Positions 19 to 46,855 of a DNA stretch of 57,739 nt are shown here, piece by piece; position 1 is the stretch's first letter; each line of letters starts with the position of its first letter. A program made the translations under genes and the position numbers. The stretch is from a virus. The notes beneath the pieces are model-generated. The model worked only from the letters and a program-made list of their open reading frames with translations. It was not told where the DNA came from and ran no database searches. The stretch covers positions 1 to 57,739 of IMG/VR virus record IMGVR_UViG_3300021138_000031; one strand, given 5' to 3'.

Positions 19-92
19 GGCTTGATGGCAGAATGATGATGCAAAGGTCTGCAAAACCTTCTATCCGAGTTTGATTCTCGGTCAAGCCTCCA
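19..92 (+). tRNA. tRNA-Cys(GCA)
   Basis: Acceptor stem GGCTTGA pairs with TCAAGCC and the CCA end is encoded. The anticodon arm AAGGT/ACCTT holds loop CTGCAAA, giving anticodon GCA at 51-53. First tRNA of the array. Confidence 0.95.
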
Positions 93-102
93 ACTAATAG
101 CT

Positions 103-190
103 GGAACATTCGAGACACGGACCTCTGAAGTCCTACCTATCTAGTAACGGAGTTAGCTACCGTGAAGACATGAGGTTAGACGAATGTTTC
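103..190 (+). ncRNA. Structured non-tRNA RNA between tRNA-Cys and tRNA-Asp
   Basis: A 10-bp outer stem (103-112 with 181-190) encloses two hairpins. One is GGAC/GTCC at 119-133 with a 7-nt loop CTCTGAA that looks like an anticodon loop. The other is ACGG/CCGT at 147-163. There is no recognisable T arm and no CCA end matched to the stem, so it is not an ordinary tRNA. T4 is known to carry two stable RNAs of unknown function (RNA C and RNA D) within its tRNA cluster, and this could be an analogue. The structure is read by eye; transcription is inferred from its position between tRNAs. Confidence 0.5.
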
Positions 191-204
191 GGCGGCGCCA
201 ATAC

Positions 205-279
205 GGCCTGTGAATCAGCTGGTGTAGATACTCGTCTGTCTAACGAGTTAGAGGGGTTCGAAACCCCTACAGGTCGCCA
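205..279 (+). tRNA. tRNA-Asp(GTC)
   Basis: Acceptor stem GGCCTGT pairs with ACAGGTC, followed by G and CCA. Anticodon stem CTCGT/ACGAG holds loop CTGTCTA, anticodon GTC. T arm AGGGG/CCCCT has loop TTCGAAA. Confidence 0.95.
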
Positions 280-287
280 TATAAATA
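280..287 (+). promoter_or_regulatory. T4-type late promoter
   Basis: Perfect TATAAATA octamer directly after the CCA of tRNA-Asp and 26 bp before the ATG of the next gene. T4-like late promoters consist of this -10 element alone. Confidence 0.7.
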
Positions 288-313
288 GATTATGAAATAA
301 TTGGAGATATAAC

Positions 314-706
314 ATGACAGATAATACAGATGTTGAAGCAGCCCTTAAATCGGTCTTAGATACATTATCTAAGTCACCTATTAATCCAGCTGCACAAGCA
401 CAACCACTAAGCACAGATCCAATTCCACCTGAGCATCATCTAGAGCTCATTGGAAATGTTTCTAATATCGTTGACTATGTCAGTACAGAGGTTGCAAAAC
501 ATAAGCAACTGTTAAATATACTTGAGTCTTTTAATGCCAAGTTAAATGAGAGTCACTCAATTCTTAGTAATAAGAATGTTGTTAGTGTCGTTCAGGCTGA
601 AAAGAAAAAGTGGTACTCGATGACAACAGCTCATAAGATTGAAGCAGTTATTGTCGCAGCAGTCTTTATTATTGGTATAGTAACTGCAATTAAGTTTTTA
701 ATTTAA
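314..706 (+). CDS. Late tail-anchored membrane protein
   Basis: A 130-residue protein. The N-terminal two thirds are hydrophilic and helical (about 45-90). A KKKW patch precedes one hydrophobic segment at about 109-130 that ends the protein, so a single C-terminal membrane anchor with the rest in the cytoplasm is likely. GGAG at 303-306 serves the ATG at 314, and a perfect late promoter lies just upstream. I do not recognise a family. It shares the helical-plus-anchor build with the minus-strand proteins at 3.8-5.7 kb, so a role at the host membrane late in infection is possible but unproven. Confidence 0.8.
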   Translation: MTDNTDVEAALKSVLDTLSKSPINPAAQAQPLSTDPIPPEHHLELIGNVSNIVDYVSTEVAKHKQLLNILESFNAKLNESHSILSNKNVVSVVQAEKKKWYSMTTAHKIEAVIVAAVFIIGIVTAIKFLI

Positions 707-710
707 TAAA

Positions 711-760
711 GTGTCGGTCGGGGAAGATGGTAATCCGCAGGTTCTTAGAACCTATAATTT
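711..760 (+). other. tRNA-Leu-like 5' half or hairpin terminator
   Basis: Between the membrane-protein gene and the HNH gene lies a stretch that resembles the 5' half of tRNA-Leu(TAG). It has GGAA..TGGTA spacing like the D arm and a CTTAGAA loop. No T arm or 3' acceptor follows. The same bases contain a perfect AGGTTC/GAACCT hairpin (739-753) that could simply end transcription of the upstream gene. Both readings are open. Confidence 0.3.
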
Positions 761-767
761 ATAAATA
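760..767 (+). promoter_or_regulatory. T4-type late promoter before HNH gene
   Basis: Perfect TATAAATA, 29 bp upstream of the ATG at 797. Confidence 0.6.
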
Positions 768-796
768 TAAAAAAATGTTTATAGAGAGGATTGCTT

Positions 797-1153
797 ATGA
801 AACTTTGCCCGAAATGCAATAACAGTCATAATAAAAATGGTGTTTATTGTTCATATTCTTGCGCGAATTCTAGAAAAATATTCAGTAATGATGAAATATT
901 TATTGAAAATTCTAGTTATCCAAGACATCGTCTTAAAGAACGTTTGATTAAACAAAATTTAATCAAATATGAATGTCAAGAGTGTTATAATGATGGAAAT
1001 TATAATAACAAAAAATTAGTATTACAGCTTGATCATATCAATGGTGTAAATAATGACAATAAAATTAGTAATTTAAGATTTTTATGTCCAAACTGTCATA
1101 CACAACAAGATACGTATGCAGCGAAAAATATAAAAAAAAAATTGTCGGTGTAG
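797..1153 (+). CDS. HNH homing endonuclease
   Basis: A 118-residue protein with a small N-terminal zinc-ribbon-like CPKC...C..C segment. A C-terminal HNH core follows (LQLDHINGVNNDN and LRFLCPNCH) with metal-binding CxxC pairs. HNH enzymes of this type make sequence-specific breaks in DNA and spread their own genes. The ATG at 797 has GAGAGGA 7 nt upstream; an earlier TTG at 791 is less likely. The gene is markedly AT-rich and lysine/asparagine-rich relative to its neighbours, which suggests recent arrival. Its last codons and stop lie inside the 5' acceptor strand of tRNA-Trp, and the heptamer TGTCGGT occurs both before (712-718) and at the end (1143-1149) of the segment. Confidence 0.9.
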   Translation: MKLCPKCNNSHNKNGVYCSYSCANSRKIFSNDEIFIENSSYPRHRLKERLIKQNLIKYECQECYNDGNYNNKKLVLQLDHINGVNNDNKISNLRFLCPNCHTQQDTYAAKNIKKKLSV

Positions 1154-1217
1154 TGTAACGGTAGCACAACGGTCTCCAAAACTGTTAGTCAAGGTTCAAA
1201 TCCTTGCACCTTCGCCA
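1144..1217 (+). tRNA. tRNA-Trp(CCA) with damaged acceptor stem
   Basis: Anticodon arm ACGGT/ACTGT holds loop CTCCAAA, anticodon CCA. T arm CAAGG/CCTTG and an encoded CCA end are clear. Acceptor strands GTCGGTG and CACCTTC mismatch at pairs 2-71 and 3-70. The first ten bases are shared with the end of the HNH gene, so insertion of that gene may have replaced the original 5' bases. Function is uncertain. Confidence 0.8.
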
Positions 1218-1236
1218 CTTTAATAGGGGGATATGA

Positions 1237-1893
1237 TTGGCAGGAAAAATAGCTCTATTCATAGATCACCCAAGGTGCTCCATTCATGGTGTGAATGGCA
1301 TCATGAATATCCTGCAACCATATTACAAATTTAAGATCTTTACCAAGCACGAGATACTCTACGACGATTGGTTCGATGACGTAGATATGATAGCTGTGCC
1401 TGGAGGTATTGGCGATGCTGATACCTTTAATCGTATCATGAGACCACATATACCTGTTATAAGAGACTTTGTATTAAATCAAGGTGGTAAGTATCTTGGT
1501 ATATGCATGGGTGCTTATTGGGCAGGAAAAGAATATCTAAACATATTAGAGAACAAAGACTGTGTGCAGTATCTAGCAAGACCCGGCACAGACACCAGAA
1601 GACCACACGCTAAGAACTTAGAAGTCACGTGGAACGGTCAAAAAGAGAAGATGTTCTGGTATGATGGCTGCAGTATTATCGGGGATGGTAAATTCAATAC
1701 TGTAGCAACTTATACAAATGGTGATATTATGGCAGGTTTCCAAAGGAACATCGGTCTAATAGGTTCTCACCCAGAAGCTGAGAGACACTGGTACACAGAA
1801 TATAGCTGGATGAATAAAGTCTGGGATGAGAATGTTGCCAAACACAATCACAAATTATTGTTAGAGTTTGTAGACGAACTAATGAGAAGATAA
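1237..1893 (+). CDS. Class I glutamine amidotransferase-like (BPL-N type) protein
   Basis: A 218-residue single-domain protein. The PGGIGDAD loop (about 55-62), GICMGAYWAG with likely nucleophile Cys90, and SHPEAERHWY near the C-terminus fit the biotin-protein-ligase N-terminal domain family of the DJ-1/PfpI/GATase-1 fold. Members occur as stand-alone proteins in bacteria and phages, and their reaction is mostly unknown. The start is TTG at 1237, 6 nt after GGGGG; the ATG at 1233 is out of frame. The stop codon ends on the base before tRNA-Phe. A hydrolase or amidase activity is inferred from the Cys motif only. Confidence 0.8.
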   Translation: MAGKIALFIDHPRCSIHGVNGIMNILQPYYKFKIFTKHEILYDDWFDDVDMIAVPGGIGDADTFNRIMRPHIPVIRDFVLNQGGKYLGICMGAYWAGKEYLNILENKDCVQYLARPGTDTRRPHAKNLEVTWNGQKEKMFWYDGCSIIGDGKFNTVATYTNGDIMAGFQRNIGLIGSHPEAERHWYTEYSWMNKVWDENVAKHNHKLLLEFVDELMRR

Positions 1894-1969
1894 GCTTGGG
1901 TAGCTCAGCTGGTAGAGCACCTGCCTGAAGAGCAGGGTGTCGGCGGTTCGATCCCGTCTCCAAGCACCA
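1894..1969 (+). tRNA. tRNA-Phe(GAA)
   Basis: Acceptor GCTTGGG/TCCAAGC, anticodon stem CCTGC/GCAGG with loop CTGAAGA (GAA), T arm with TTCGATC loop, CCA encoded. It begins on the base after the preceding stop codon. Confidence 0.97.
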
Positions 1970-1983
1970 TATAGGAGAACACT

Positions 1984-2184
1984 ATGACCTTTGAAGATCT
2001 ACTAGCCTGGGATGGAATCACTGTAGCAGAGAGTATGGTGTTGACCGGCTTAGCAAAGACTAAGTCAGAAGCTCGCCGTATGATTGATCAAGGATCAGTT
2101 AAAGTAGACGATATAAAAGTAACTAATCCTAAAGCTGTGATATTGTTTAGTCCAGATAGAATAAAACACTGTGTAGTTCACTAA
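1984..2184 (+). CDS. Stand-alone S4 RNA-binding domain protein
   Basis: A 66-residue protein that is essentially one S4 domain. The segment TKSEARRMIDQGSVKVDD (about 27-44) is the typical alpha-L RNA-binding motif, closest by eye to the C-terminal S4 domain of tyrosyl-tRNA synthetase. It has an AGGAG site before ATG 1984 and sits between tRNA-Phe and tRNA-Arg, its stop abutting the latter. The family is known to bind structured RNA such as tRNA and rRNA. A role in binding phage tRNAs or the nearby structured RNAs is inference from position. Confidence 0.85.
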   Translation: MTFEDLLAWDGITVAESMVLTGLAKTKSEARRMIDQGSVKVDDIKVTNPKAVILFSPDRIKHCVVH

Positions 2185-2261
2185 GGATCCGTAGCTCAAC
2201 TGAATAGAGCGCCGCGCTACGAACGCGGAGGTTAGGGGTTTGAGTCCTCTCGGGTCCTCCA
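2185..2261 (+). tRNA. tRNA-Arg(ACG)
   Basis: Acceptor GGATCCG/CGGGTCC, anticodon stem CCGCG/CGCGG with loop CTACGAA (ACG), T loop TTTGAGT, CCA encoded. Starts on the base after the S4 gene stop. Confidence 0.95.
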
Positions 2262-2278
2262 TAATAAAGGAGTATACC

Positions 2279-2749
2279 ATGAAGAAAATTAATATAGAAG
2301 AGGTAAAAGAGTTCATCGCAGCTCAGTCTCCAGAGACCAAGATCTATATTGGTGGTGACTCCGAGAGATTTAATATGAAGGGATTATGGTACGCCGACTA
2401 TACCCTTGCTGTAGTCGTGCACTATAATGGTAATCGTGGCTGTAAGATATTTGGTGAGGTACAGCGCGAGCGTGACTTTGACCAGCAGAAAGACAAGCCA
2501 CGCCTTAGACTTATGAATGAAACTTTTAAGATTGCCGAACTTTATATGAAGTTGGCTGAAGTTTTAGAAGATCGTCTTGTGGAAGTACACCTTGACATTA
2601 ATCCTGATGAACATCATGGTTCATCATGTGTAATTAATGAGGCAACAGGGTATATTAGAGGTATGTGTAATGTAATTCCTATGGTAAAACCAAATGCTTG
2701 GGCAGCCAGCTACGCAGCAGATAGGCTTAAAGAGATACTAGCAGCTTAA
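2279..2749 (+). CDS. DUF458 (YkuK-like) RNase H-fold protein
   Basis: A 156-residue protein. IYIGGDSE near the N-terminus and the C-terminal run HLDINPDEHHGSSC...EATGYIRG...VKPNAWAAS..AD match the DUF458/YkuK family, predicted to have an RNase H-like fold. The acidic residues are in D..E..D order. Activity and substrate are not established for the family. ATG 2279 has AAGGAG at the correct spacing; an in-frame upstream ATG would overlap tRNA-Arg and is unlikely. It lies between tRNA-Arg and tRNA-Gly in the same direction, so co-transcription and excision from a tRNA precursor are likely. Confidence 0.8.
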   Translation: MKKINIEEVKEFIAAQSPETKIYIGGDSERFNMKGLWYADYTLAVVVHYNGNRGCKIFGEVQRERDFDQQKDKPRLRLMNETFKIAELYMKLAEVLEDRLVEVHLDINPDEHHGSSCVINEATGYIRGMCNVIPMVKPNAWAASYAADRLKEILAA

Positions 2750-2764
2750 GATATATAGAGATAT

Positions 2765-2839
2765 GCGGGTGTAGCTCAGTGGTAGAGCTTCTGCCTTCCA
2801 AGCAGAATGTCGTGGGTTCGAATCCCATCGCCCGCTCCA
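2765..2839 (+). tRNA. tRNA-Gly(TCC)
   Basis: Acceptor GCGGGTG/CGCCCGC, anticodon stem TCTGC/GCAGA with loop CTTCCAA (TCC), T loop TTCGAAT, CCA encoded. Confidence 0.97.
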
Positions 2840-2842
2840 GAA

Positions 2843-2968
2843 TTCGGTAGGCAGTGTAGAACATATGGTCGGTCATGGGTCGCTCTCATGGCGAGGTCGG
2901 GGAGGCAGTGCCTCATAACCTTGGAAACCCGTGCACTGAAAAGAGGATGCATACTCGTTCCTACCGAA
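2843..2968 (+). ncRNA. Structured RNA between tRNA-Gly and tRNA-Leu
   Basis: A 9-bp closing stem TTCGGTAGG/CCTACCGAA (2843-2851 with 2960-2968) encloses CAGTG/CACTG (2852-2856 with 2934-2938). Inside are hairpins GAGGC/GCCTC (2902-2914, 3-nt loop) and TCGC/GCGA (2880-2894, 7-nt loop TCTCATG). The bases CGCTCTCAT also occur in the anticodon region of tRNA-Met at 3704. No open reading frame of note. It could be an analogue of the T4 stable RNAs C and D; its function is unknown. Confidence 0.55.
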
Positions 2969-2976
2969 CTTAATTA

Positions 2977-3053
2977 GCGCGTGTGACGGAATTGGTATAC
3001 GTACTAGTCTTAGAAACTAGGTTCTGGGGGTTCAAGTCCCTCCATGCGCACCA
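2977..3053 (+). tRNA. tRNA-Leu(TAG)
   Basis: Acceptor GCGCGTG/CATGCGC, anticodon stem CTAGT/ACTAG with loop CTTAGAA (TAG), CCA encoded. The variable arm is short for a Leu tRNA. Confidence 0.93.
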
Positions 3054-3069
3054 AATTTAGGAGAACCAT

Positions 3070-3243
3070 ATGGATGAGGAGATGGAGAAAGAAGACTTCT
3101 CTATTGCATTCTGGGAATGGTTTGATTCCCTGGCTCGTGTAGAGAAAGAGAGGTTCTGGAACTACGGAGCCGATATGGCTAAGATATACTTTTACAATAA
3201 GTATTGGGTCAAGAGGTCACGTAGCTCAACTGGACAGAGCTGA
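3070..3243 (+). CDS. Small acidic/aromatic protein overlapping tRNA-Arg
   Basis: A 57-residue ORF beginning MDEEMEKEDF with an aromatic-rich middle (FWEWF, FWNYG, YFYNKYW). AGGAG precedes ATG 3070. The last nine codons and the stop lie within tRNA-Arg(CCT), so the mRNA would be cut inside the reading frame when the tRNA is processed. No family recognised. It could be a real late small protein or a reading frame shortened by tRNA acquisition. Confidence 0.6.
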   Translation: MDEEMEKEDFSIAFWEWFDSLARVEKERFWNYGADMAKIYFYNKYWVKRSRSSTGQS

Positions 3244-3291
3244 TCCGTCCTAAGGATAAGGTTGGGAGTTCGAGTCTCTCCGTGATCGCCA
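3215..3291 (+). tRNA. tRNA-Arg(CCT)
   Basis: Acceptor GGTCACG/CGTGATC, anticodon arm ATCC/GGAT with loop GTCCTAA (CCT), T arm GGGAG/CTCTC, then G and CCA. Overlaps the end of the small ORF at 3070-3243. Confidence 0.92.
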
Positions 3292-3292
3292 T

Positions 3293-3367
3293 GCTGCCTT
3301 AGCACAGTGGTAGTGCACATCATTGGTAATGATGAGGTCGACAGTTCAATCCTGTCAGGCAGCACCA
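3293..3367 (+). tRNA. tRNA-Thr(GGT)
   Basis: Acceptor GCTGCCT/AGGCAGC, anticodon stem CATCA/TGATG with loop TTGGTAA (GGT), T arm GACAG/CTGTC, CCA encoded. One base separates it from tRNA-Arg(CCT). Confidence 0.95.
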
Positions 3368-3375
3368 TATAAATA
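3368..3375 (+). promoter_or_regulatory. T4-type late promoter
   Basis: Perfect TATAAATA immediately after tRNA-Thr and 22 bp before the next ATG, the same tRNA-promoter-gene arrangement as at 280 and 41071. Confidence 0.7.
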
Positions 3376-3397
3376 ATAGTTTAACAGGGAGGTAAGC

Positions 3398-3703
3398 ATG
3401 AGATACCTAATACCCCTACTATTGATATCAACATCGGCACTAGCACAACAACAACCATGTGGAACAGCACAAACAGTACATGATTTTATTTCAAACAATT
3501 ATAGTGAAAAACCATTCATTGAGATGAAAGATGAACATGATAGACAATTTATTATGTACGTAAATCCCGATAACGGTAGCTGGACAGTAGTACAGCTTAC
3601 TGAGCAGGGTACAATGTGTGGTATATCTTCTGGTAAAGGAATGATTCCTGCAACTAAAAGATTTGAGACTACACCGCCAAAGAAAAAAGAAGATCCTAGT
3701 TAA
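3398..3703 (+). CDS. Small secreted protein with signal peptide
   Basis: A 101-residue protein. Residues 1-16 (MRYLIPLLLISTSALA) form a clear Sec signal with an ALA cleavage site. The mature part has two cysteines (CGTAQ and MCGIS) that could form a disulfide in the periplasm and ends in a Pro/Lys tail. ATG 3398 follows GGGAGG. A late promoter lies upstream and the stop codon abuts tRNA-Met. Family unknown; host bacteria encode similar short periplasmic proteins, so host origin is possible. Confidence 0.75.
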   Translation: MRYLIPLLLISTSALAQQQPCGTAQTVHDFISNNYSEKPFIEMKDEHDRQFIMYVNPDNGSWTVVQLTEQGTMCGISSGKGMIPATKRFETTPPKKKEDPS

Positions 3704-3778
3704 GCAGGTAGGTCGGCAAGGTGTCGAACCGCTCTCATAAGGCGCATAAGATTGGTTCGATTCCAATTACCTGCACCA
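3704..3778 (+). tRNA. tRNA-Met/Ile2(CAT)
   Basis: Acceptor GCAGGTA/TACCTGC, loop CTCATAA (CAT), T arm ATTGG/CCAAT with TTCGATT loop, CCA encoded. The anticodon stem has one mismatch and the position 8-9 bases are GG rather than T-purine. CAT may read AUG or, if lysidine-modified, AUA. Starts on the base after a stop codon. Confidence 0.85.
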
Positions 3779-4312
3779 TTATAGCCAAGGTATAGTGAAG
3801 AAATACCATATACCATTTGCTAGGAATAATCCTCCTAATACACCTATTAATATAGAAGCAAAAAGAAGCTCCATGCTTACTGCAAGAATAGATGTCGAGC
3901 TTAGCACAATAGCTATCTGCAAGAATGCAGACGCAAAGTTCATATATGGACTTCTCTTCTTTGCCTCATCACGCTCAGCTTCAAGCTTCTTAGCTTTATC
4001 GTATATCTCCATACGATCATCGGCGAGCTTGTTTATATTTCTAATATAAGACTCATGCAGACTCATATCAGTAATCATATTATTAGCTACCTCATAAAGG
4101 TCTTGCTTAATTGACTTAGCTTGATAGAATGCCCACGTGTCAGAAGCTGCGATATTATTTGATAATATCTTACCGCTCAAGCTACCACCGATAAGTGTGC
4201 ATATAGCAAGTAGCGCTGCATATATAGATATAGTGATAGCACCACGGCTCTTCATGATCGCCTCACCCTCCGAGCGAGACAGTATCTTACCTGTCTTGTC
4301 TTTCATAACCAT
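3779..4312 (-). CDS. Late membrane protein, coiled-coil middle
   Basis: A 177-residue protein with one hydrophobic segment at about 27-48, a charged helical stretch (about 85-115, rich in K, E, D and A), and two close hydrophobic segments at about 125-170. Last of four minus-strand genes that run 5666 to 3779 with overlaps or gaps of 1-2 bases, so one operon is likely, driven by the TATAAATA at 5747-5740. Family not recognised. The shared build (anchor plus coiled coil) suggests the four products form a membrane-associated assembly late in infection. Confidence 0.75.
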   Translation of the reverse strand: MVMKDKTGKILSRSEGEAIMKSRGAITISIYAALLAICTLIGGSLSGKILSNNIAASDTWAFYQAKSIKQDLYEVANNMITDMSLHESYIRNINKLADDRMEIYDKAKKLEAERDEAKKRSPYMNFASAFLQIAIVLSSTSILAVSMELLFASILIGVLGGLFLANGIWYFFTIPWL

Positions 4313-4313
4313 A

Positions 4314-4901
4314 TTACTTCTTTCCCATTTTAATGAGTTGCTCTATTAAAGCTATTCTCTTATCAAGTTCTGCTCTAGCAAGAGCAGAGTTCTTCTCGAC
4401 ACCGTCTACTCTATCATTTAGAGCTTCTTTAAGTTGCTGAGTTGCCATGGACGCGTCTGCTCTTATATTTGCACGAGCGGTTGCTGCCTCAGCCGTCATG
4501 TCCATACGCTGCTTCTCTAAAGCCGCAAGTTGCTTCTCGCGTTCAAGAGTCATATTAGCACGAGCGAGAGCAGCGTCTTTTTCTACCTTGTCGATCTTAT
4601 CACCGAGCTCACCTGTTTGTTTATCGATCTTCGTGTTAAGATTCTCACGAATTTGAGCCATGTCGATCGTGGTACCTTGTGGAGGGATTGCCTTGTTGTC
4701 GTTATTGACTACAACTGCAATTTTACTCTCAAGAACCGTGATAGCATGATTAGAAGAACTAAGAGCGGTGAATAAGTATACTACACAAGAGAATAAGATC
4801 GGAACTGCTGCAAATACGATCTTCTCTACCAATGCACTCTTGCTAGCACTCGCTGCTAGCGTCTCGCTCATCTGAGCTGTTTTATCTGATACTGTAGACA
4901 T
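4314..4901 (-). CDS. Late coiled-coil membrane protein
   Basis: A 195-residue protein. One membrane segment at about 29-48 (VFAAVPILFSCVVYLFTAL) is followed by a long heptad-rich region (about 85-190) with repeated ALARA.L and DKVEKDAALARAN / DGVEKNSALARAE segments. That internal duplication suggests an extended coiled coil, probably periplasmic or cytoplasmic and oligomeric. Third gene of the minus-strand operon, 1 base from both neighbours. No enzyme motif. A phage tether, exclusion protein or lysis accessory are all possible; nothing in the sequence decides. Confidence 0.75.
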   Translation of the reverse strand: MSTVSDKTAQMSETLAASASKSALVEKIVFAAVPILFSCVVYLFTALSSSNHAITVLESKIAVVVNNDNKAIPPQGTTIDMAQIRENLNTKIDKQTGELGDKIDKVEKDAALARANMTLEREKQLAALEKQRMDMTAEAATARANIRADASMATQQLKEALNDRVDGVEKNSALARAELDKRIALIEQLIKMGKK

Positions 4902-4902
4902 A

Positions 4903-5181
4903 TTACTTCCCCGTAAATTGTTTGACTAATCCACCAACTTGGCTTATGGATACTGATCCACTTGATAATTCATTCACAAGGACATATCCAACACCTATTA
5001 CTAATATGCTAATTAGTGTTAACAAGATTATAGAGGCGATTCCTAAATTATCTTCTAACTCCATCAACTTAGATCGTATAATGTCCATGCGTGCATCATT
5101 ATCGATCTTATTCCATGAGGCTAACCATGGATGAGTGTCGATATCTTCTTTAGAAACAGGCTCAACCATTAGTGACCACAT
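4903..5181 (-). CDS. Small single-pass membrane protein
   Basis: A 92-residue protein whose N-terminal half is charged (DTHPWLASWNKIDNDARMDI). A hydrophobic segment at about 52-74 (IASIILLTLISILVIGVGYVLV) is followed by a short polar tail. Its start overlaps the end of the upstream gene by 13 bases, which indicates translational coupling. Part of the four-gene late membrane operon. No family recognised. Confidence 0.7.
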   Translation of the reverse strand: MWSLMVEPVSKEDIDTHPWLASWNKIDNDARMDIIRSKLMELEDNLGIASIILLTLISILVIGVGYVLVNELSSGSVSISQVGGLVKQFTGK

Positions 5182-5666
5182 AGTGCTTTCATGAGAGGAA
5201 TAATACCCTTCATATTATAGCAAGCCAATACATCAGACATACCCCATATAAGTAGTCCAATCCATACCATGAATGGAACAACGATAAATAATATAACACC
5301 TACCCACACGAGCTCCATCATTTCCTCATGTGCTCTCTCTGCAGCTACCTTAGCTCTATGTGCTTCTTTTGCAGCATCTGCTTTATCTTTATAGTACTGC
5401 TGGCGCTGAGCCGGAGACATCTTGGCTATCATCGTAGCTTCTTGCTCTGCAGCGATCTCTCGCATAGCTTGCTCGCGCAGTCTGTTATTATTGCGCGTTA
5501 CTTGATTGTTGATGTCAGTGATCTTATTCTGATTAATAATTCTTTGATTATTAGCAGCCTTAATATTTTTAGCGTTTCTGACATCGTCTACGATGCCGAA
5601 TACTTGGTCGCTAAGACCCTTTCCTAGAGAACTGCCCAGCTTTGCTGCGGACTTTGGATCGAGCAT
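5169..5666 (-). CDS. Coiled-coil membrane protein, first gene of late minus operon
   Basis: A 165-residue protein. A long charged helical region (about 30-115) contains KMSPAQRQQYYKDKADAAKE and other Ala/Glu/Lys/Arg stretches. A strong membrane segment follows at about 117-140 (VWVGVILFIVVPFMVWIGLL) with a short Cys-containing tail. It is first after the minus-strand TATAAATA promoter, about 75 bases from it. Family unknown. Confidence 0.72.
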   Translation of the reverse strand: MLDPKSAAKLGSSLGKGLSDQVFGIVDDVRNAKNIKAANNQRIINQNKITDINNQVTRNNNRLREQAMREIAAEQEATMIAKMSPAQRQQYYKDKADAAKEAHRAKVAAERAHEEMMELVWVGVILFIVVPFMVWIGLLIWGMSDVLACYNMKGIIPLMKALCGH

Positions 5667-5739
5667 TAGTTATCTCCTGGTAATTTTATGTAAAAAAATA
5701 ACTAAAATTCACAGTAAATAACTAAAATTCATGTGTACT

Positions 5740-5747
5740 TATTTATA
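5740..5747 (-). promoter_or_regulatory. Minus-strand T4-type late promoter
   Basis: The plus strand reads TATTTATA, which is TATAAATA on the minus strand, 73 bp ahead of the first gene of the membrane-protein operon. The 5666-5760 region also has a near-direct repeat of AATAACTAAAATTCA. Confidence 0.65.
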
Positions 5748-5761
5748 AAATGGGGTGTATA

Positions 5762-6184
5762 ATGAAAACTGGATTTACTTGTAGTACCTTTGATCTTCTT
5801 CATGCCGGTCATGTCCTTATGCTCATGGAGGCAAAAAATAATTGCGACTATCTTATTGTAGGATTACAGACAGACCCTACAATAGATAGGCCCGATACTA
5901 AGAATAAACCCGTACAATCTATTGTAGAGAGACAATTGCAACTACAAGCAGTCAAATATATCGATGAGATTATAGTGTATGAGACCGAGCAGGATCTTAT
6001 GGATATATTACAGACAGCTGATATTAATATTAGATTTATCGGGGAAGACTATATTGGCAAAGATTTTACAGGAAAACAGTACTGTATTGATGCTGGTATT
6101 GATATAGAATACAATTCCCGTAAACATAGGTTCTCTACCACTGAGCTGAGGCAGAGGGCTGGACTTTCTAAGACGGATATATAA
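5762..6184 (+). CDS. TagD/HldE-type nucleotidyltransferase
   Basis: A 140-residue cytidylyl/adenylyltransferase-fold enzyme. HAGH (residues 14-17) is the nucleotide-binding HxGH motif, VERQLQLQAV carries the ER motif, and FSTTELRQR stands in for the ISSTxxR motif. Family members transfer CMP or AMP to glycerol-3-phosphate or heptose-1-phosphate. Length suits glycerol-3-phosphate cytidylyltransferase or the HldE C-terminal domain. ATG 5762 is preferred to the in-frame ATG at 5750 because GGGGTG lies 6-7 nt before it. With the heptose kinase and isomerase at 45-47 kb it could complete activation of a heptose; that link is inference. Confidence 0.85.
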   Translation: MKTGFTCSTFDLLHAGHVLMLMEAKNNCDYLIVGLQTDPTIDRPDTKNKPVQSIVERQLQLQAVKYIDEIIVYETEQDLMDILQTADINIRFIGEDYIGKDFTGKQYCIDAGIDIEYNSRKHRFSTTELRQRAGLSKTDI

Positions 6185-6189
6185 TAGAC

Positions 6190-6211
6190 CTGTTCAATTC
6201 AGGACAGGTTA
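6190..6211 (+). other. Hairpin between nucleotidyltransferase and tRNA-Met
   Basis: ACCTGT and ACAGGT form a 6-bp stem just upstream of the tRNA. There is no T-run, so it is more likely a processing or stability element than a terminator. Confidence 0.3.
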
Positions 6212-6218
6212 AAACCGG

Positions 6219-40595: not shown

Positions 40596-40980
40596 TGTAG
40601 TCGACTCAGAGATCCTAGAGAACTATATAGGATTTGTATACATTATCACGAACCTCACAAACAATAAGAAATATATAGGTAAGAAGCTTCTAAAGAAGTC
40701 AAAGACACGCCAAGTTAAGGGTAAGAAGAAGCGCTCACTAGTCGAGTCTGACTGGAAAGACTACTATGGATCTAATAAAGATCTATTAGTCGAGTTAAAC
40801 AGTGAAGGCATGGCTCCTAGTAACTTTAAGCGTGAGATACTCAGGCTGTGTAAGACCAAAGGCGAGTGCACTTATTACGAGGCTAAAGCACAGTTTGATG
40901 CAGACGTGCTAAATAAAGATGACTACTACAATGGTTGGATCATAGCCAAGGTTAGTAGAAGTCATTTACCAAAGAATTAG
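40561..40980 (+). CDS. GIY-YIG-type endonuclease
   Basis: A 139-residue protein. FVYIITNLTNNKKYIGKKL (about 24-42) is the GIY-YIG motif. SLVESDWKDYYGSNKDL and REILRLCKTKGECTYYEAKA follow, with a likely catalytic Glu. Related small phage proteins are putative homing or DNA-degrading nucleases. The TAG stop shares its G with the first base of tRNA-Ser(GCT), so processing of that tRNA would cut the stop codon. No DNA-recognition tail typical of Seg proteins is seen. Confidence 0.85.
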   Translation: MSYENPWTFNNNVVDSEILENYIGFVYIITNLTNNKKYIGKKLLKKSKTRQVKGKKKRSLVESDWKDYYGSNKDLLVELNSEGMAPSNFKREILRLCKTKGECTYYEAKAQFDADVLNKDDYYNGWIIAKVSRSHLPKN

Positions 40981-41069
40981 GAAGGGTGGCTGAGTGGCCT
41001 AAAGCACCTCACTGCTAACGAGACGTACCTTAACCGGTACCGTGGGTTCGAATCCCACCCCTTCCGCCA
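40980..41069 (+). tRNA. tRNA-Ser(GCT)
   Basis: 90-nt class II tRNA. Acceptor GGAAGGG/CCCTTCC, loop CTGCTAA (GCT), long variable arm GTACCTTAACCGGTAC, T arm GTGGG/CCCAC, then G and CCA. Its first G is the last base of the upstream stop codon. It lies 30 kb from the main array. Confidence 0.95.
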
Positions 41070-42857: not shown

Positions 42858-43820
42858 ATGGCAAATAGAGTATGGGGTCAGTCCTTTGGCTATCACTACA
42901 CAGTTGAAGGATCTGATTGTGATCTAGAAAGTCTTAAATCATTTGATACATCACAACAATTTTTAATTGAGTTGCTATCAATATACTCTGTATATCCAAT
43001 TCCAGCATCCGGTTATCCAAACGTATTTAAGTATAATCCTGAATCTGATGCATTAGCTATTCATCAAGCACTAGTAACTGGAATGATTAGTATATACACA
43101 AATCCCAGTGACAGTGCAATCTACTTTGATATGATGATTGATAGATCATTTAATCAGGAACCTATCATTAATATGATGGCTAAACATTATGGAATGAAAG
43201 TATATAAAACTAATTTTATGCGTCGACAAGCAGACCTTAAACATACTCTTAGTGGAAATAATGAAGAGGATATTATTAAACATATTACTATGGCTGGTAA
43301 TATTACATTTAATGATATATTTGAACGAGCTTTGCCTGATGGCTTAGTGCTTGAATTTGGTGTTGCTGAGGGTAAGTCTATTAGGGAGATGGCTGCTGCA
43401 GCACCAGATAGAAAGATCTGGGGATTTGACTCGTTTGAAGGACTTCCAGAAGACTGGAAAGAGGATGTTGGAAAAGGTGCTTTCGCCTGTGAGCCACCAA
43501 CAGACTTGGCTGACAACGTTGAGTTAGTCATCGGCTGGTTTAACAATACTCTAGAAGAGTGGGCCACAAATAATCCAGGTCCTTTATCTGTTATACATCT
43601 TGATGCAGATCTATACTCATCAACAGACTACGTGATGCGCACACTCGAGGACAGATTTGTTGATGGCACTATCATCGTGTTCGATGAGATACACGGTCAC
43701 CCTGACCATAAAGAGCATGAGTATAAGAACTTCCTAGAGTTCCTTGATCGCACCGGCTTTAAGTGGGAATGCTTGGGACAACGTACTGGTGAAGCAGCCG
43801 CGTTTAGGATCTATAAATAA
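42858..43820 (+). CDS. Inactive SpeD-like domain fused to TylF-type methyltransferase
   Basis: A 320-residue fusion. Residues about 7-125 follow the fold of the SpeD-like protein encoded next door (FGYHYTVEGSDC; IYFDMMIDRSFNQEP; YKTNFMRRQA). The Ser, His and Cys needed for pyruvoyl formation and decarboxylation are not conserved. Residues about 150-320 are a class I SAM methyltransferase of the TylF (macrocin O-methyltransferase) type: LVLEFGVAEGKSIREMA, IWGFDSFEGLPEDW, VIHLDADLYSSTDYV, FDEIHGHPDHKEHEY. TylF enzymes methylate sugar hydroxyls. The sugar target could come from the heptose genes downstream; the decayed domain may regulate its active paralogue. Both ideas are inference. Confidence 0.82.
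   Translation: MANRVWGQSFGYHYTVEGSDCDLESLKSFDTSQQFLIELLSIYSVYPIPASGYPNVFKYNPESDALAIHQALVTGMISIYTNPSDSAIYFDMMIDRSFNQEPIINMMAKHYGMKVYKTNFMRRQADLKHTLSGNNEEDIIKHITMAGNITFNDIFERALPDGLVLEFGVAEGKSIREMAAAAPDRKIWGFDSFEGLPEDWKEDVGKGAFACEPPTDLADNVELVIGWFNNTLEEWATNNPGPLSVIHLDADLYSSTDYVMRTLEDRFVDGTIIVFDEIHGHPDHKEHEYKNFLEFLDRTGFKWECLGQRTGEAAAFRIYK
43812..43819 (+). promoter_or_regulatory. T4-type late promoter
   Basis: Perfect TATAAATA overlapping the stop codon of the fusion gene, 36 bp before the SpeD-like start. It would drive the decarboxylase-sugar cluster late. Confidence 0.65.
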
Positions 43821-43855
43821 AATCACCTTAACAATGTACATGGGAGTACTGACTA

Positions 43856-44239
43856 ATGAGTGAATACTGGGGATATCACCTAATCATTGACGCATCCGGT
43901 TGTAATCCGGAATCTATCTCATCTGCTGATAATATCACAGCATTTGCAAAACAATTAGTAGTAGACATCGATATGGTACCATATGGTGAGCCACAGGTAG
44001 TTAACTTTGGTAGTGGTAATAAGCAAGGATATACTCTCGTACAATTAATCGAGACTTCTAATATCTGCGCGCACTTTGTAGAAGAAAATAATACATTCTA
44101 TCTTGATGTTTTCTCATGCAAGCCATATGACCCACAGATTGTTATTGAACTAACTAAGAAGTATTTTAAGTATACAAACTTTCGTACGGCTTTCTTAGAA
44201 CGTCAAGCACCGTCTGAAAATTCAACAGAAACAGTATAA
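43856..44239 (+). CDS. SpeD-like pyruvoyl-dependent decarboxylase
   Basis: A 127-residue protein of the S-adenosylmethionine decarboxylase (SpeD, class 1b) fold. Ser68 in IETSNI, His73 in CAHF and Cys88 in VFSC have exactly the +5 and +20 spacing of the catalytic Ser63, His68 and Cys83 of the Thermotoga enzyme, so self-cleavage to a pyruvoyl group is expected. The family makes decarboxylated SAM for spermidine, and some phage and bacterial members are reported to decarboxylate ornithine or arginine instead. The substrate here is not decided. GGAG precedes ATG 43856. Confidence 0.85.
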   Translation: MSEYWGYHLIIDASGCNPESISSADNITAFAKQLVVDIDMVPYGEPQVVNFGSGNKQGYTLVQLIETSNICAHFVEENNTFYLDVFSCKPYDPQIVIELTKKYFKYTNFRTAFLERQAPSENSTETV

Positions 44240-44265: not shown

Positions 44266-45276
44266 ATGACTGAAGAACAATATAATGCTTTTGAAGAGAA
44301 TGAGATATCAAAAAAATCACAAGGCGGCACAGAGATCACTAAGAGATCAATCGCCGCCTTGGTCGACCCAGAGTTAGCAAGTAACTTTCAGGTTATTCCT
44401 GCACGCGTGCGTGAGTTGCAAGACGACAAGATTCGTATATACTGGCTACATGACCTAGCAGAAGATCCAGAAGCCAATCACCTGCAAGATCCACGCAGTC
44501 GTGATCGCTTTCATAAGTTTGTGTTCTCGAGCAACTGGCAATATCAGCAGTATGTCGATAAGCTTGGTTTCCCACAGTCATCCGACTCAGTTGTATTAGA
44601 GACACCAATTGAACCATTCAAGCGTGTAGAGAAGAGCAAAGATGAGGTTCGTCTCATCTATTTCTCGACACCACATCGTGGTCTAGAGTTGCTAGTGCCT
44701 GTGTTTGAAGAGCTTGCAAAGCACCATGACAACGTTCATCTCGATGTGTTCTCTAGCTATAAGATCTATGGCTGGGAAGAAGCAGACGAGAAGTATGAGG
44801 CACTATTCGATCGCATACGCAATCATCCAAAGATGACTTATCATGGCTTCCAGCCTAATGATGTATTGCGTGAGGCTGTTAGCAAGGCACACATCCTAGC
44901 ATATCCATCTATCTGGGCTGAGACGAGCTGCCGCGTATTGATGGAGTCGATGAGTGCCGGTCTGTTGTGCGTGCATCCTAACTTCGGTGCATTGGCCGAC
45001 ACTTCAGGTGGATTAACATCTATGTACCCATATGACACCAATCCAAACAATCACGCCAATATCTTTTATGCACATCTTGATGAGGCTGTTAATATTGTTA
45101 ACACCGAGAATGCACAAAACTATCTAGGCTTTACAAAGACATATGCTGATGCACGATTTAATATCCAAAAGATATCTAGCCAATGGAATACAGTGATGAA
45201 GGGACTACTTCAGCAGTATCCAGACGCAGAGTCGAGAGCATTGAAGAAGAGAGAGATGTTTAGGTATAAAGTCTAA
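44266..45276 (+). CDS. GT4-like glycosyltransferase
   Basis: A 336-residue GT-B-fold enzyme. The N-terminal SQGGTEITKRS binds the acceptor side. RLIYFSTPHRGLELLVPVFE and YHGFQPNDVLREAVSKAHIL then YPSIWAETSCRVLMESMSAG form the C-terminal nucleotide-sugar domain with the Ex7E-type motif. It transfers a sugar, probably from the heptose pathway encoded by the next two genes. Acceptor unknown: virion protein, DNA base or host LPS are all possible. Cytoplasmic, no membrane segment. Confidence 0.86.
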   Translation: MTEEQYNAFEENEISKKSQGGTEITKRSIAALVDPELASNFQVIPARVRELQDDKIRIYWLHDLAEDPEANHLQDPRSRDRFHKFVFSSNWQYQQYVDKLGFPQSSDSVVLETPIEPFKRVEKSKDEVRLIYFSTPHRGLELLVPVFEELAKHHDNVHLDVFSSYKIYGWEEADEKYEALFDRIRNHPKMTYHGFQPNDVLREAVSKAHILAYPSIWAETSCRVLMESMSAGLLCVHPNFGALADTSGGLTSMYPYDTNPNNHANIFYAHLDEAVNIVNTENAQNYLGFTKTYADARFNIQKISSQWNTVMKGLLQQYPDAESRALKKREMFRYKV

Positions 45277-46268
45277 TGATTGTAACAAAGACTCCGTTAA
45301 GGATATCTTTCTTTGGGGGTGGAAGTGACATACCGCAGTACTACAACAAGTATCCAGGTATGGTCATCTCCACCTCTATTGATAAGAACATATACATCGC
45401 AGCCAATAAGTGTCAGGCCAACCACTTTAAGATCATCTACTCACAGCTCGAGCTGACTAATCATAGGGTAGACATCAAGCATGATCGCATCAAGGCAATC
45501 ATGGAATATTTTAATGTGTATGGCAATGTAGAGCTATGCAGTTTCTCTGACATTGATACTCGTGGTAGTGGATTAGGCTCATCTTCAACGTTCACCGTCG
45601 GTAGCTTACACGCTATGTTCGAGATGCTTGGTAAGAAGACTAATCGTCTTGAGTTAGCTGAGCTCGCGTCACATATCGAGATTAATATGTGCGGTGAGCC
45701 GATTGGTAAGCAGGATCAGTACGCTGCAGCCTTTGGTGGCTTCAACGTGATTAGGTTTAACTCATCAGGAGTTGAGGTGAGACCTGTCTTTATTAAGCCA
45801 TCTGTTGTTGAGGAGCTAAACGATAACTTATTGTGCTTCAACACTGGTGTCACAAGAGCAGCGTCTTCTGTGCTGAAAGAGCAGGTCAAGGGACTAGAGG
45901 GTGGCATTACGCAGAACACAACAATCAATCAGACATCCAGTCTTGTAGATATAGCTGAGGTAGCACTCAAGTATATAGAGAATGGACACTTAGATGACTT
46001 TGGTGCACTACTCGATACATCATGGCGCATCAAGAAGAAGTTGGCAAAGAGTATATCAAATCCTATCATAGATATAATGTATGAGCAGGGAATGAGCTGC
46101 GGCGCACTAGGTGGCAAGCTGCTCGGTGCAGGAGGCGGTGGCTACATGCTGTTCTATATACCGAAGAGTAAACAGGCACAACTCAGAGAGACGATGGCTG
46201 AAGAGGGATATAAACAGATGGACTTTAAGTTTACAGACAAGGGATCGACAGTGGAGCTATCTATATGA
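45276..46268 (+). CDS. hddA: GHMP kinase, D-glycero-D-manno-heptose 7-phosphate kinase-like
   Basis: A 330-residue sugar kinase. TPLRISFFGGGSDIPQYY (about 6-23) is the HddA-type substrate loop, DTRGSGLGSSSTFTVG (about 94-109) the GHMP ATP loop, and GGKLLGAGGGGYMLF the C-terminal motif. HddA kinases phosphorylate heptose 7-phosphate at C1. It overlaps the glycosyltransferase stop by 1 base and the isomerase by 4 bases, so the three are one unit. The symbol is by family resemblance. Confidence 0.86.
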   Translation: MIVTKTPLRISFFGGGSDIPQYYNKYPGMVISTSIDKNIYIAANKCQANHFKIIYSQLELTNHRVDIKHDRIKAIMEYFNVYGNVELCSFSDIDTRGSGLGSSSTFTVGSLHAMFEMLGKKTNRLELAELASHIEINMCGEPIGKQDQYAAAFGGFNVIRFNSSGVEVRPVFIKPSVVEELNDNLLCFNTGVTRAASSVLKEQVKGLEGGITQNTTINQTSSLVDIAEVALKYIENGHLDDFGALLDTSWRIKKKLAKSISNPIIDIMYEQGMSCGALGGKLLGAGGGGYMLFYIPKSKQAQLRETMAEEGYKQMDFKFTDKGSTVELSI

Positions 46269-46855
46269 CTTTAAGCAAATACATTCAGTATCTTAATCAA
46301 GCGCTAGACACTATCGACCAAGGCGATTATGCTGGTATGGTGTTTCATCTGACACACGCTGCTCGCACAAATAAGCCAGTCTATGTGTTTGGTAACGGTG
46401 GATCGGCTTCGACCGCAGACCACTTCGCATGTGACCACTCAAAGGGTGTGTTGACAGACACTGACTTTATTCCTAACGTTATCAGCCTGAGCTCGAACAT
46501 GGCACTGTTCTCTGCCTTGGCAAATGATATCGGTTATGACAGTGTGTTTAGTCACCAGCTCAGACACTTTCCTCATGATAATGGAATAGCCATCGGTATA
46601 TCAGCCAGCGGCAACTCACAGAACGTACTTAATGGATTAAATCAGGCAAGAGAGATGGGATTCACAACCATTGGTTTGGTTGGATTTGATGGCGGTAAGA
46701 TGAAGAGTGAAAGCCTGTGTGATATACTAATCCATGTCAAGTCGACCAACTATGGCATTGTTGAGGACTGCCACTCGATCATCATGCATACCACATCTCA
46801 GGAGATACGTACAAGCAATCTTAAGGGTGACCCCGACCATATCCCCAAACTATAA
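46265..46855 (+). CDS. gmhA: SIS-domain sedoheptulose-7-phosphate isomerase
   Basis: A 196-residue SIS protein. YVFGNGGSASTADHFACDHS (about 41-60) and IGISASGNSQNVLNG (about 117-131) are the GmhA signatures. GmhA turns sedoheptulose 7-phosphate into D-glycero-D-manno-heptose 7-phosphate, the substrate of the kinase before it. A phosphatase and a nucleotidyltransferase are still needed; candidates are the HAD proteins at 25728 and 56496 and the enzyme at 5762, or host enzymes. Confidence 0.88.
   Translation: MTLSKYIQYLNQALDTIDQGDYAGMVFHLTHAARTNKPVYVFGNGGSASTADHFACDHSKGVLTDTDFIPNVISLSSNMALFSALANDIGYDSVFSHQLRHFPHDNGIAIGISASGNSQNVLNGLNQAREMGFTTIGLVGFDGGKMKSESLCDILIHVKSTNYGIVEDCHSIIMHTTSQEIRTSNLKGDPDHIPKL

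What the first reader, a model, noticed from the sequence alone, without database searches (positions are those of the whole stretch)
42858..44239. Decayed SpeD domain fused to a TylF-type methyltransferase next to an intact SpeD
The 320-residue protein carries a SpeD-like N-terminal domain without the Ser/His/Cys triad, joined to a sugar-type O-methyltransferase. The next gene encodes a SpeD homologue with Ser68, His73 and Cys88 in exact catalytic spacing. Trypanosomes have an inactive AdoMet decarboxylase partner (prozyme) that activates the active enzyme. A phage could use a similar active/inactive pair, linking decarboxylation to methyl transfer.
Basis: partly seen in the sequence, partly recalled or inferred. 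Interest (0 to 1): 0.86.

Follow-up and report, generated by a model that had tools for sequence, protein, structure and literature searches.

The report
Dead decarboxylase domain fused to sugar methyltransferase
One phage lineage has joined a catalytically dead copy of a small polyamine enzyme to an apparently intact sugar methyltransferase, next to a live copy of the polyamine enzyme; the dead part has kept its shape under selection and most likely serves as a docking scaffold, much as in human spermine synthase, rather than as a trypanosome-style activator.

Summary
Window 42858-43820 encodes one unbroken 320-aa protein: a SpeD-fold domain (about 8-127) and a TylF-type methyltransferase (158-320). 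In the SpeD-fold domain the catalytic Ser/His/Cys are Gly75/Tyr80/Asp95. AlphaFold gives pLDDT 88; best solved match is T. maritima AdoMetDC, Z 15. The next gene is a SpeD homologue with Ser68/His73/Cys88. The fusion occurs in seven IMG/VR contigs (five distinct sequences counting the window), always followed by SpeD, and nowhere else I looked. The dead domain is under purifying selection (dN/dS about 0.07-0.18), so it is inactive, not decaying.

The interpretation needs changing. The live neighbour carries all four residues reported as diagnostic for pyruvoyl-dependent ornithine decarboxylase, so it probably does not use SAM. In related phages the methyltransferase is a separate gene in a heptose/glycan cassette. 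The dead domain also lacks the residues a partner chain must supply to a class 1b active site, so a heterodimer would probably be inactive. The best precedent is human spermine synthase: a dead SpeD-like N-terminal domain drives dimerisation of a Rossmann-fold transferase. My reading is a dimerisation scaffold for a sugar O-methyltransferase (about 0.5). Heterodimerisation with SpeD is not excluded.

The parts
42858..43820 (+). Fusion protein, 320 aa: dead SpeD-fold domain plus TylF-type methyltransferase
   Evidence: same ORF in L003-L009
42879..43238 (+). Dead SpeD-fold domain (residues about 8-127). Triad replaced by G75/Y80/D95 and Ser55-equivalent by A67; keeps Q70, T74, Y89
43239..43328 (+). 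Linker (residues about 128-157), the most variable part
43329..43817 (+). TylF-type sugar O-methyltransferase domain (residues about 158-320) with invariant E166-F-G-V, G172, D191, H247, D249, D251, D276, E277
43856..44239 (+). Live SpeD homologue, 127 aa, S68/H73/C88, with Q63/T67/F74/Y82 (ornithine-decarboxylase type, SpeDC)
44266..45276 (+). Glycosyltransferase group 1, neighbouring glycan cassette
45276..46268 (+). GHMP kinase, HddA-like (D-glycero-D-manno-heptose 7-phosphate kinase best NCBIfam model, below cut-off)
46265..46855 (+). SIS-domain isomerase, GmhA-like (sedoheptulose 7-phosphate isomerase best NCBIfam model, below cut-off)

Best explanation
The fusion is a working sugar O-methyltransferase of the TylF type that has taken a catalytically dead SpeD domain, most likely a phage SpeDC duplicate, as its N-terminal module. 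The dead domain can no longer self-cleave or decarboxylate. It keeps the alpha/beta half-sandwich whose sheet face pairs two chains in bacterial SpeD enzymes. Its likeliest job is to dimerise the methyltransferase, as the dead SpeD-like domain of human spermine synthase does for its Rossmann-fold aminopropyltransferase. The methyltransferase probably methylates a sugar (heptose or similar) made and transferred by the adjacent GmhA-like, HddA-like and glycosyltransferase genes. The next gene is a separate pyruvoyl-dependent decarboxylase, probably of ornithine, making putrescine. Shown by computation: architecture, fold, loss of the triad, intactness of the methyltransferase motifs, conservation, purifying selection, gene context. 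Inferred: dimerisation, sugar substrate, ornithine specificity.
For: SpeD fold with high confidence, with human spermine synthase 3c6k among the matches (Z 9.7, rmsd 4.8 over 105). In animal spermine synthase the AdoMetDC-derived domain lost activity but stays essential for dimer formation (PMC12803844; PMC11203672). Bacterial half-enzymes pair by their beta-sheet faces (PMC5201418). Dead domain dN/dS 0.07-0.18 against 0.02-0.09 (methyltransferase) and 0.05-0.11 (SpeD). Methyltransferase core residues are invariant between fused and free forms; closest solved structures are sugar O-methyltransferases CalS11, NovP, MycF. Relatives have the free methyltransferase with NTase, GmhA-, GmhB-, transaldolase-, GT- and HddA-like genes. 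The same methyltransferase family is fused to other partners elsewhere: a nucleotidyltransferase in L099, and in mycobacteriophages it is the C-terminal part of a family annotated as glycosyltransferase (phrog_8858). The neighbour has all four SpeDC residues; 45 of 45 phage relatives share them, and phiN3, a proven AdoMetDC, lacks the Thr.
Against: Dimerisation was not tested: no complex prediction was possible, and free relatives of the methyltransferase manage without this domain. The full-length model is confident only for the methyltransferase part. No sugar or other acceptor has been identified. The origin from phage SpeDC is not statistically secure: grouping the dead domain with canonical SpeD is not rejected (p-AU 0.17), and its ISIYTxP stretch resembles canonical ISIHTWP.
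Confidence: 0.5

Rival explanations
1. The dead domain forms a mixed dimer with the live SpeD homologue and lowers or regulates its activity (dominant-negative brake), or tethers the methyltransferase to it.
For: The two genes are adjacent in all seven contigs. They share the fold and about 25% identity. Class 1b SpeD pairs by the sheet face, and each active site uses residues of both chains (PMC1282579), so a subunit with A67/Y80 would spoil the partner's site.
Against: In L009/L014 the SpeD gene is DNA-identical to the window's while the fused dead domain and most of the methyltransferase differ strongly (about 70% DNA identity), so partners have been swapped by recombination. SpeD is present in the same neighbourhood in phages without the fusion.
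Confidence: 0.2
2. Prozyme-like pair: the dead domain activates the live decarboxylase.
For: Formal resemblance: a dead paralogue beside a live one. Victivallis SpeD fused to a degraded SpeD still has AdoMetDC activity (PMC10407285).
Against: Prozyme's dimerisation domain is absent from bacterial enzymes (PMC5201418). The live SpeD has close relatives that stand alone without the fusion. The dead domain lost the His and Ser55 equivalents that a complementing half would need to supply.
Confidence: 0.07
3. The dead domain binds a small ligand (ornithine, putrescine or similar) and regulates the methyltransferase.
For: Three of the four residues diagnostic for ornithine-type SpeD (Q70, T74, Y89) are invariant in the dead domain although all three catalytic residues are gone.
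Against: Those residues may be structural. The fourth (Phe) is Thr. No ligand evidence.
Confidence: 0.13
4. Functionless fossil of a SpeD duplication fused by a local deletion, carried along by the methyltransferase.
For: Restricted to one phage lineage. Longest branch in the tree (4.84). Slightly more relaxed than its neighbours.
Against: dN/dS far below 1 across divergent copies, intact predicted fold, no stops.
Confidence: 0.1

Closest known systems
Human/animal spermine synthase (PDB 3C6K)
   Same: N-terminal domain with the class 1b AdoMetDC fold that lost catalysis, fused to a C-terminal Rossmann-type transferase; the dead domain has a structural role in dimer formation (PMC12803844).
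   Different: C-terminal domain here is a TylF-type methyltransferase, not an aminopropyltransferase; no spermine/spermidine synthase family match in the window; phage origin, probably independent.
SpeD-SpeDC fusions with a degraded C-terminal SpeD domain (Victivallis vadensis; PMC10407285)
   Same: A dead SpeD domain kept in a fusion.
   Different: There the partner domain is a live SpeD in the same chain; here it is a methyltransferase and the live SpeD is a separate gene.
Trypanosoma AdoMetDC prozyme
   Same: Catalytically dead AdoMetDC paralogue alongside an active one.
   Different: Class 2 enzyme with a dimerisation domain and autoinhibitory N-terminus; prozyme is reported only from trypanosomatids and is not a methyltransferase fusion (PMC5201418).
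Pyruvoyl-dependent ornithine decarboxylases SpeDC, including those of freshwater phages (PMC9992855, PMC10407285)
   Same: The live neighbour has the S/H/C triad and all four diagnostic residues.
   Different: Activity of this protein not measured; sequences of the assayed freshwater phage enzymes were not available for direct comparison.
TylF / NovP / MycF / CalS11 sugar O-methyltransferases
   Same: C-terminal domain, Pfam TylF above cut-off, closest solved structures.
   Different: Short phage form; N-terminal partner is a SpeD fold.

Membership tests
SpeD/AdoMetDC class 1b fold (fusion N-terminal domain) | SpeD fold | tested here: met
   AF2 pLDDT 88.4; Foldseek prob 1.00, TMt 0.82 to 1tlu; VIA Z 15.0-15.2
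SpeD/AdoMetDC class 1b enzyme (fusion N-terminal domain) | Ser/His/Cys for pyruvoyl formation and catalysis | tested here: not met
   G75/Y80/D or N95 in all five distinct copies
SpeD/AdoMetDC class 1b (fusion N-terminal domain) | Pfam PF02675 gathering score | tested here: inconclusive
   21.1 bits (cut-off 25) in the window; 37 and 28.2 bits in relatives
Pyruvoyl ornithine decarboxylase SpeDC (43856-44239) | Ser/His/Cys triad | tested here: met
   S68/H73/C88, invariant in the family
Pyruvoyl ornithine decarboxylase SpeDC (43856-44239) | Diagnostic Gln, Thr, Phe, Tyr around the triad (PMC10407285) | tested here: met
   Q63/T67/F74/Y82; 45 of 45 phage relatives, not in phiN3 or canonical SpeD. 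Position mapping inferred from order, as the figure is not held
Pyruvoyl ornithine decarboxylase SpeDC (43856-44239) | L-ornithine decarboxylation | not testable with these tools
   needs enzyme assay
Bona fide AdoMetDC (43856-44239) | NCBIfam TIGR03330 equivalog cut-off | tested here: not met
   40.2 bits against 75.65
Prozyme | Class 2 AdoMetDC paralogue with dimerisation domain | tested here: not met
   Half-size class 1b fold, 134 residues; dimerisation domain absent from bacterial enzymes
Prozyme | Heterodimer that activates the live enzyme | not testable with these tools
   no complex prediction or assay available
Animal spermine synthase | Dead AdoMetDC-like N-terminal domain | tested here: met
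   Match to 3c6k, Z 9.7, rmsd 4.8 over 105; triad lost
Animal spermine synthase | C-terminal aminopropyltransferase (PF01564) | tested here: not met
   No match in the window; TylF domain instead
TylF-type methyltransferase | Pfam PF05711 cut-off and SAM/metal motifs | tested here: met
   53.1 bits against 23; motif residues invariant in 22 aligned members
TylF-type methyltransferase | Sugar hydroxyl methylation | not testable with these tools
   inferred from gene context and solved relatives only

The most novel reading that the evidence does not exclude
The dead SpeD domain pairs with the neighbouring live ornithine-type SpeD, so that the phage controls putrescine production and glycan methylation through one mixed complex, either as a dominant-negative brake or as a ligand-sensing switch.
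Probability: 0.15. Interest if true: 0.75.

Novelty: new variant of a known kind. Interest (0 to 1): 0.45.

Why it matters
If right, it is an apparently independent, viral case of what happened in animal spermine synthase: a dead SpeD domain kept for its shape and attached to a SAM-type Rossmann enzyme. That would suggest the SpeD half-sandwich is a reusable pairing module. It also shows that a phage 'SpeD' next to a methyltransferase need not concern SAM: the live copy here looks like an ornithine decarboxylase.

Tried and rejected
Frameshift or assembly artefact: rejected, five distinct unbroken copies. A spermidine synthase partner: no PF01564 match in the window or the fusion-bearing records tested. 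A second canonical SpeD in the fusion phages: none in the 164-kb relative, although other phages carry canonical and ornithine-type SpeD side by side (L047, L052-L054, L059; Microcystis phage MaAM05, with speE). Origin of the dead domain: the tree puts it with phage SpeDC (98/89), but the AU test does not reject the alternative, so left open. phmmer of the live SpeD against PDB sequences gave only chance matches. A joint MAFFT alignment of SpeD, fusion and methyltransferase rows misaligned the domains and was replaced by separate alignments.

Full report
What is there. The 320-aa ORF at 42858-43820 and the 127-aa ORF at 43856-44239 are as described. The first has an N-terminal AdoMet_dc-like region and a C-terminal TylF methyltransferase; the second is a clear AdoMet_dc protein. 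The N-terminal region alone scores below Pfam's cut-off in the window (21.1 bits) but above it in relatives (37 and 28.2 bits).

Fold. AlphaFold2 on residues 1-134 with 38 relatives gave pLDDT 88.4. Foldseek's best solved matches are T. maritima and A. aeolicus AdoMetDC. VIA-align gives Z 15.2 to T. maritima, about 10 to human AdoMetDC halves, and 9.7 to the N-terminal domain of human spermine synthase. The full-length model, with an alignment rich in methyltransferases, is confident (mostly above 90) for residues about 141-320 and weak for the N-terminal part.

Catalysis. Against SpeD relatives the triad is Gly75, Tyr80 and Asp/Asn95 in all five distinct fusions, and the Ser55-equivalent is Ala67. 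It cannot form a pyruvoyl group by the known chemistry. The methyltransferase keeps every residue that is invariant in 22 aligned fused and free members; its closest solved relatives are CalS11, NovP and MycF, sugar O-methyltransferases.

Conservation. The fusion was found in seven IMG/VR contigs. Counting the window there are five distinct sequences; the other four are 77-88% identical to the window's protein. Nei-Gojobori dN/dS is about 0.07-0.18 for the dead domain, 0.02-0.09 for the methyltransferase and 0.05-0.11 for SpeD. Synonymous distances are partly saturated, so these are rough, but they argue against decay.

Context. In many related phages the same neighbourhood (glutaredoxin-like gene, small genes, SpeD, glycosyltransferase, RNase H/exonuclease, DUF6433) lacks the fusion. 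In others SpeD is followed by a free methyltransferase, a nucleotidyltransferase, GmhA-like and GmhB-like genes, transaldolase, glycosyltransferase and HddA-like kinase, in varying combinations. So the methyltransferase belongs to a heptose or similar glycan cassette, and the fusion is a lineage-specific arrangement. NCBIfam scores for GmhA and HddA are below their cut-offs, so the exact sugar is open.

The live neighbour. Li et al. showed that freshwater phage SpeD homologues can be pyruvoyl-dependent ornithine decarboxylases (PMC9992855) and that Gln, Thr, Phe and Tyr around the triad are diagnostic (PMC10407285). The window's SpeD has Q63, T67, F74, Y82, as do all 45 phage relatives tested; phiN3, a proven AdoMetDC, has Asp in place of the Thr. 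The AdoMetDC equivalog model is well below cut-off (40.2 against 75.65). Ornithine specificity is therefore likely but unmeasured.

Why not a prozyme. Prozyme works through a dimerisation domain that bacterial enzymes lack and through relief of an N-terminal autoinhibition (PMC5201418). In the eukaryotic enzyme each half of the sandwich contributes active-site residues, and the prokaryotic enzyme is the same sandwich made of two identical chains (PMC1282579). Human Ser229 and His243 are needed for processing, and T. maritima Ser55 is the counterpart of Ser229 (PMC3975893). A dead domain with Ala67 and Tyr80 at the Ser55 and His68 positions would leave the live chain's site incomplete. This is inference from residues, not a measurement; the T. 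maritima S55A mutant was still processed (PMC3975893), so the His loss carries the argument. In L009/L014 an identical SpeD gene sits beside a strongly diverged fusion, so the pair has been reshuffled.

Best reading. [quoted passage not shown] The phage fusion has the same layout with a different transferase. I therefore favour a dimerisation scaffold for a sugar O-methyltransferase, at about 0.5. Origin of the dead domain from phage SpeDC is favoured by the tree (98/89) and by shared Q, T, Y and the RQA tail, but not proven.

Limits. No complex prediction was possible, sequences of the assayed freshwater ornithine decarboxylases were not found in the collections, and the host is unknown.

Noticed in passing
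L047, L052-L054, L059; L145 (Microcystis phage MaAM05): Canonical SpeD (ESHxSIHTWPE) lies directly beside an ornithine-type or SpeDC-like SpeD, in MaAM05 together with speE: possibly a phage-encoded route from ornithine to spermidine.
   Followed up: partly
window about 43650-43960 against L014: Recombination breakpoint: dead domain and most of the methyltransferase about 70% identical in DNA, then SpeD and glycosyltransferase essentially identical.
   Followed up: partly
L099:2170-3498: Same methyltransferase family fused to a cytidylyltransferase-like domain in another phage, next to GHMP kinase and SIS genes.
   Followed up: no
window 19-10215 and 40980-41069: Eighteen tRNA genes, seventeen of them within the first 10.2 kb.
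   Followed up: no
L150:252-1325 (Bacillus phage vB_BcoS-136): A canonical SpeD domain in the middle of a 357-aa protein with extra N- and C-terminal regions.
   Followed up: no
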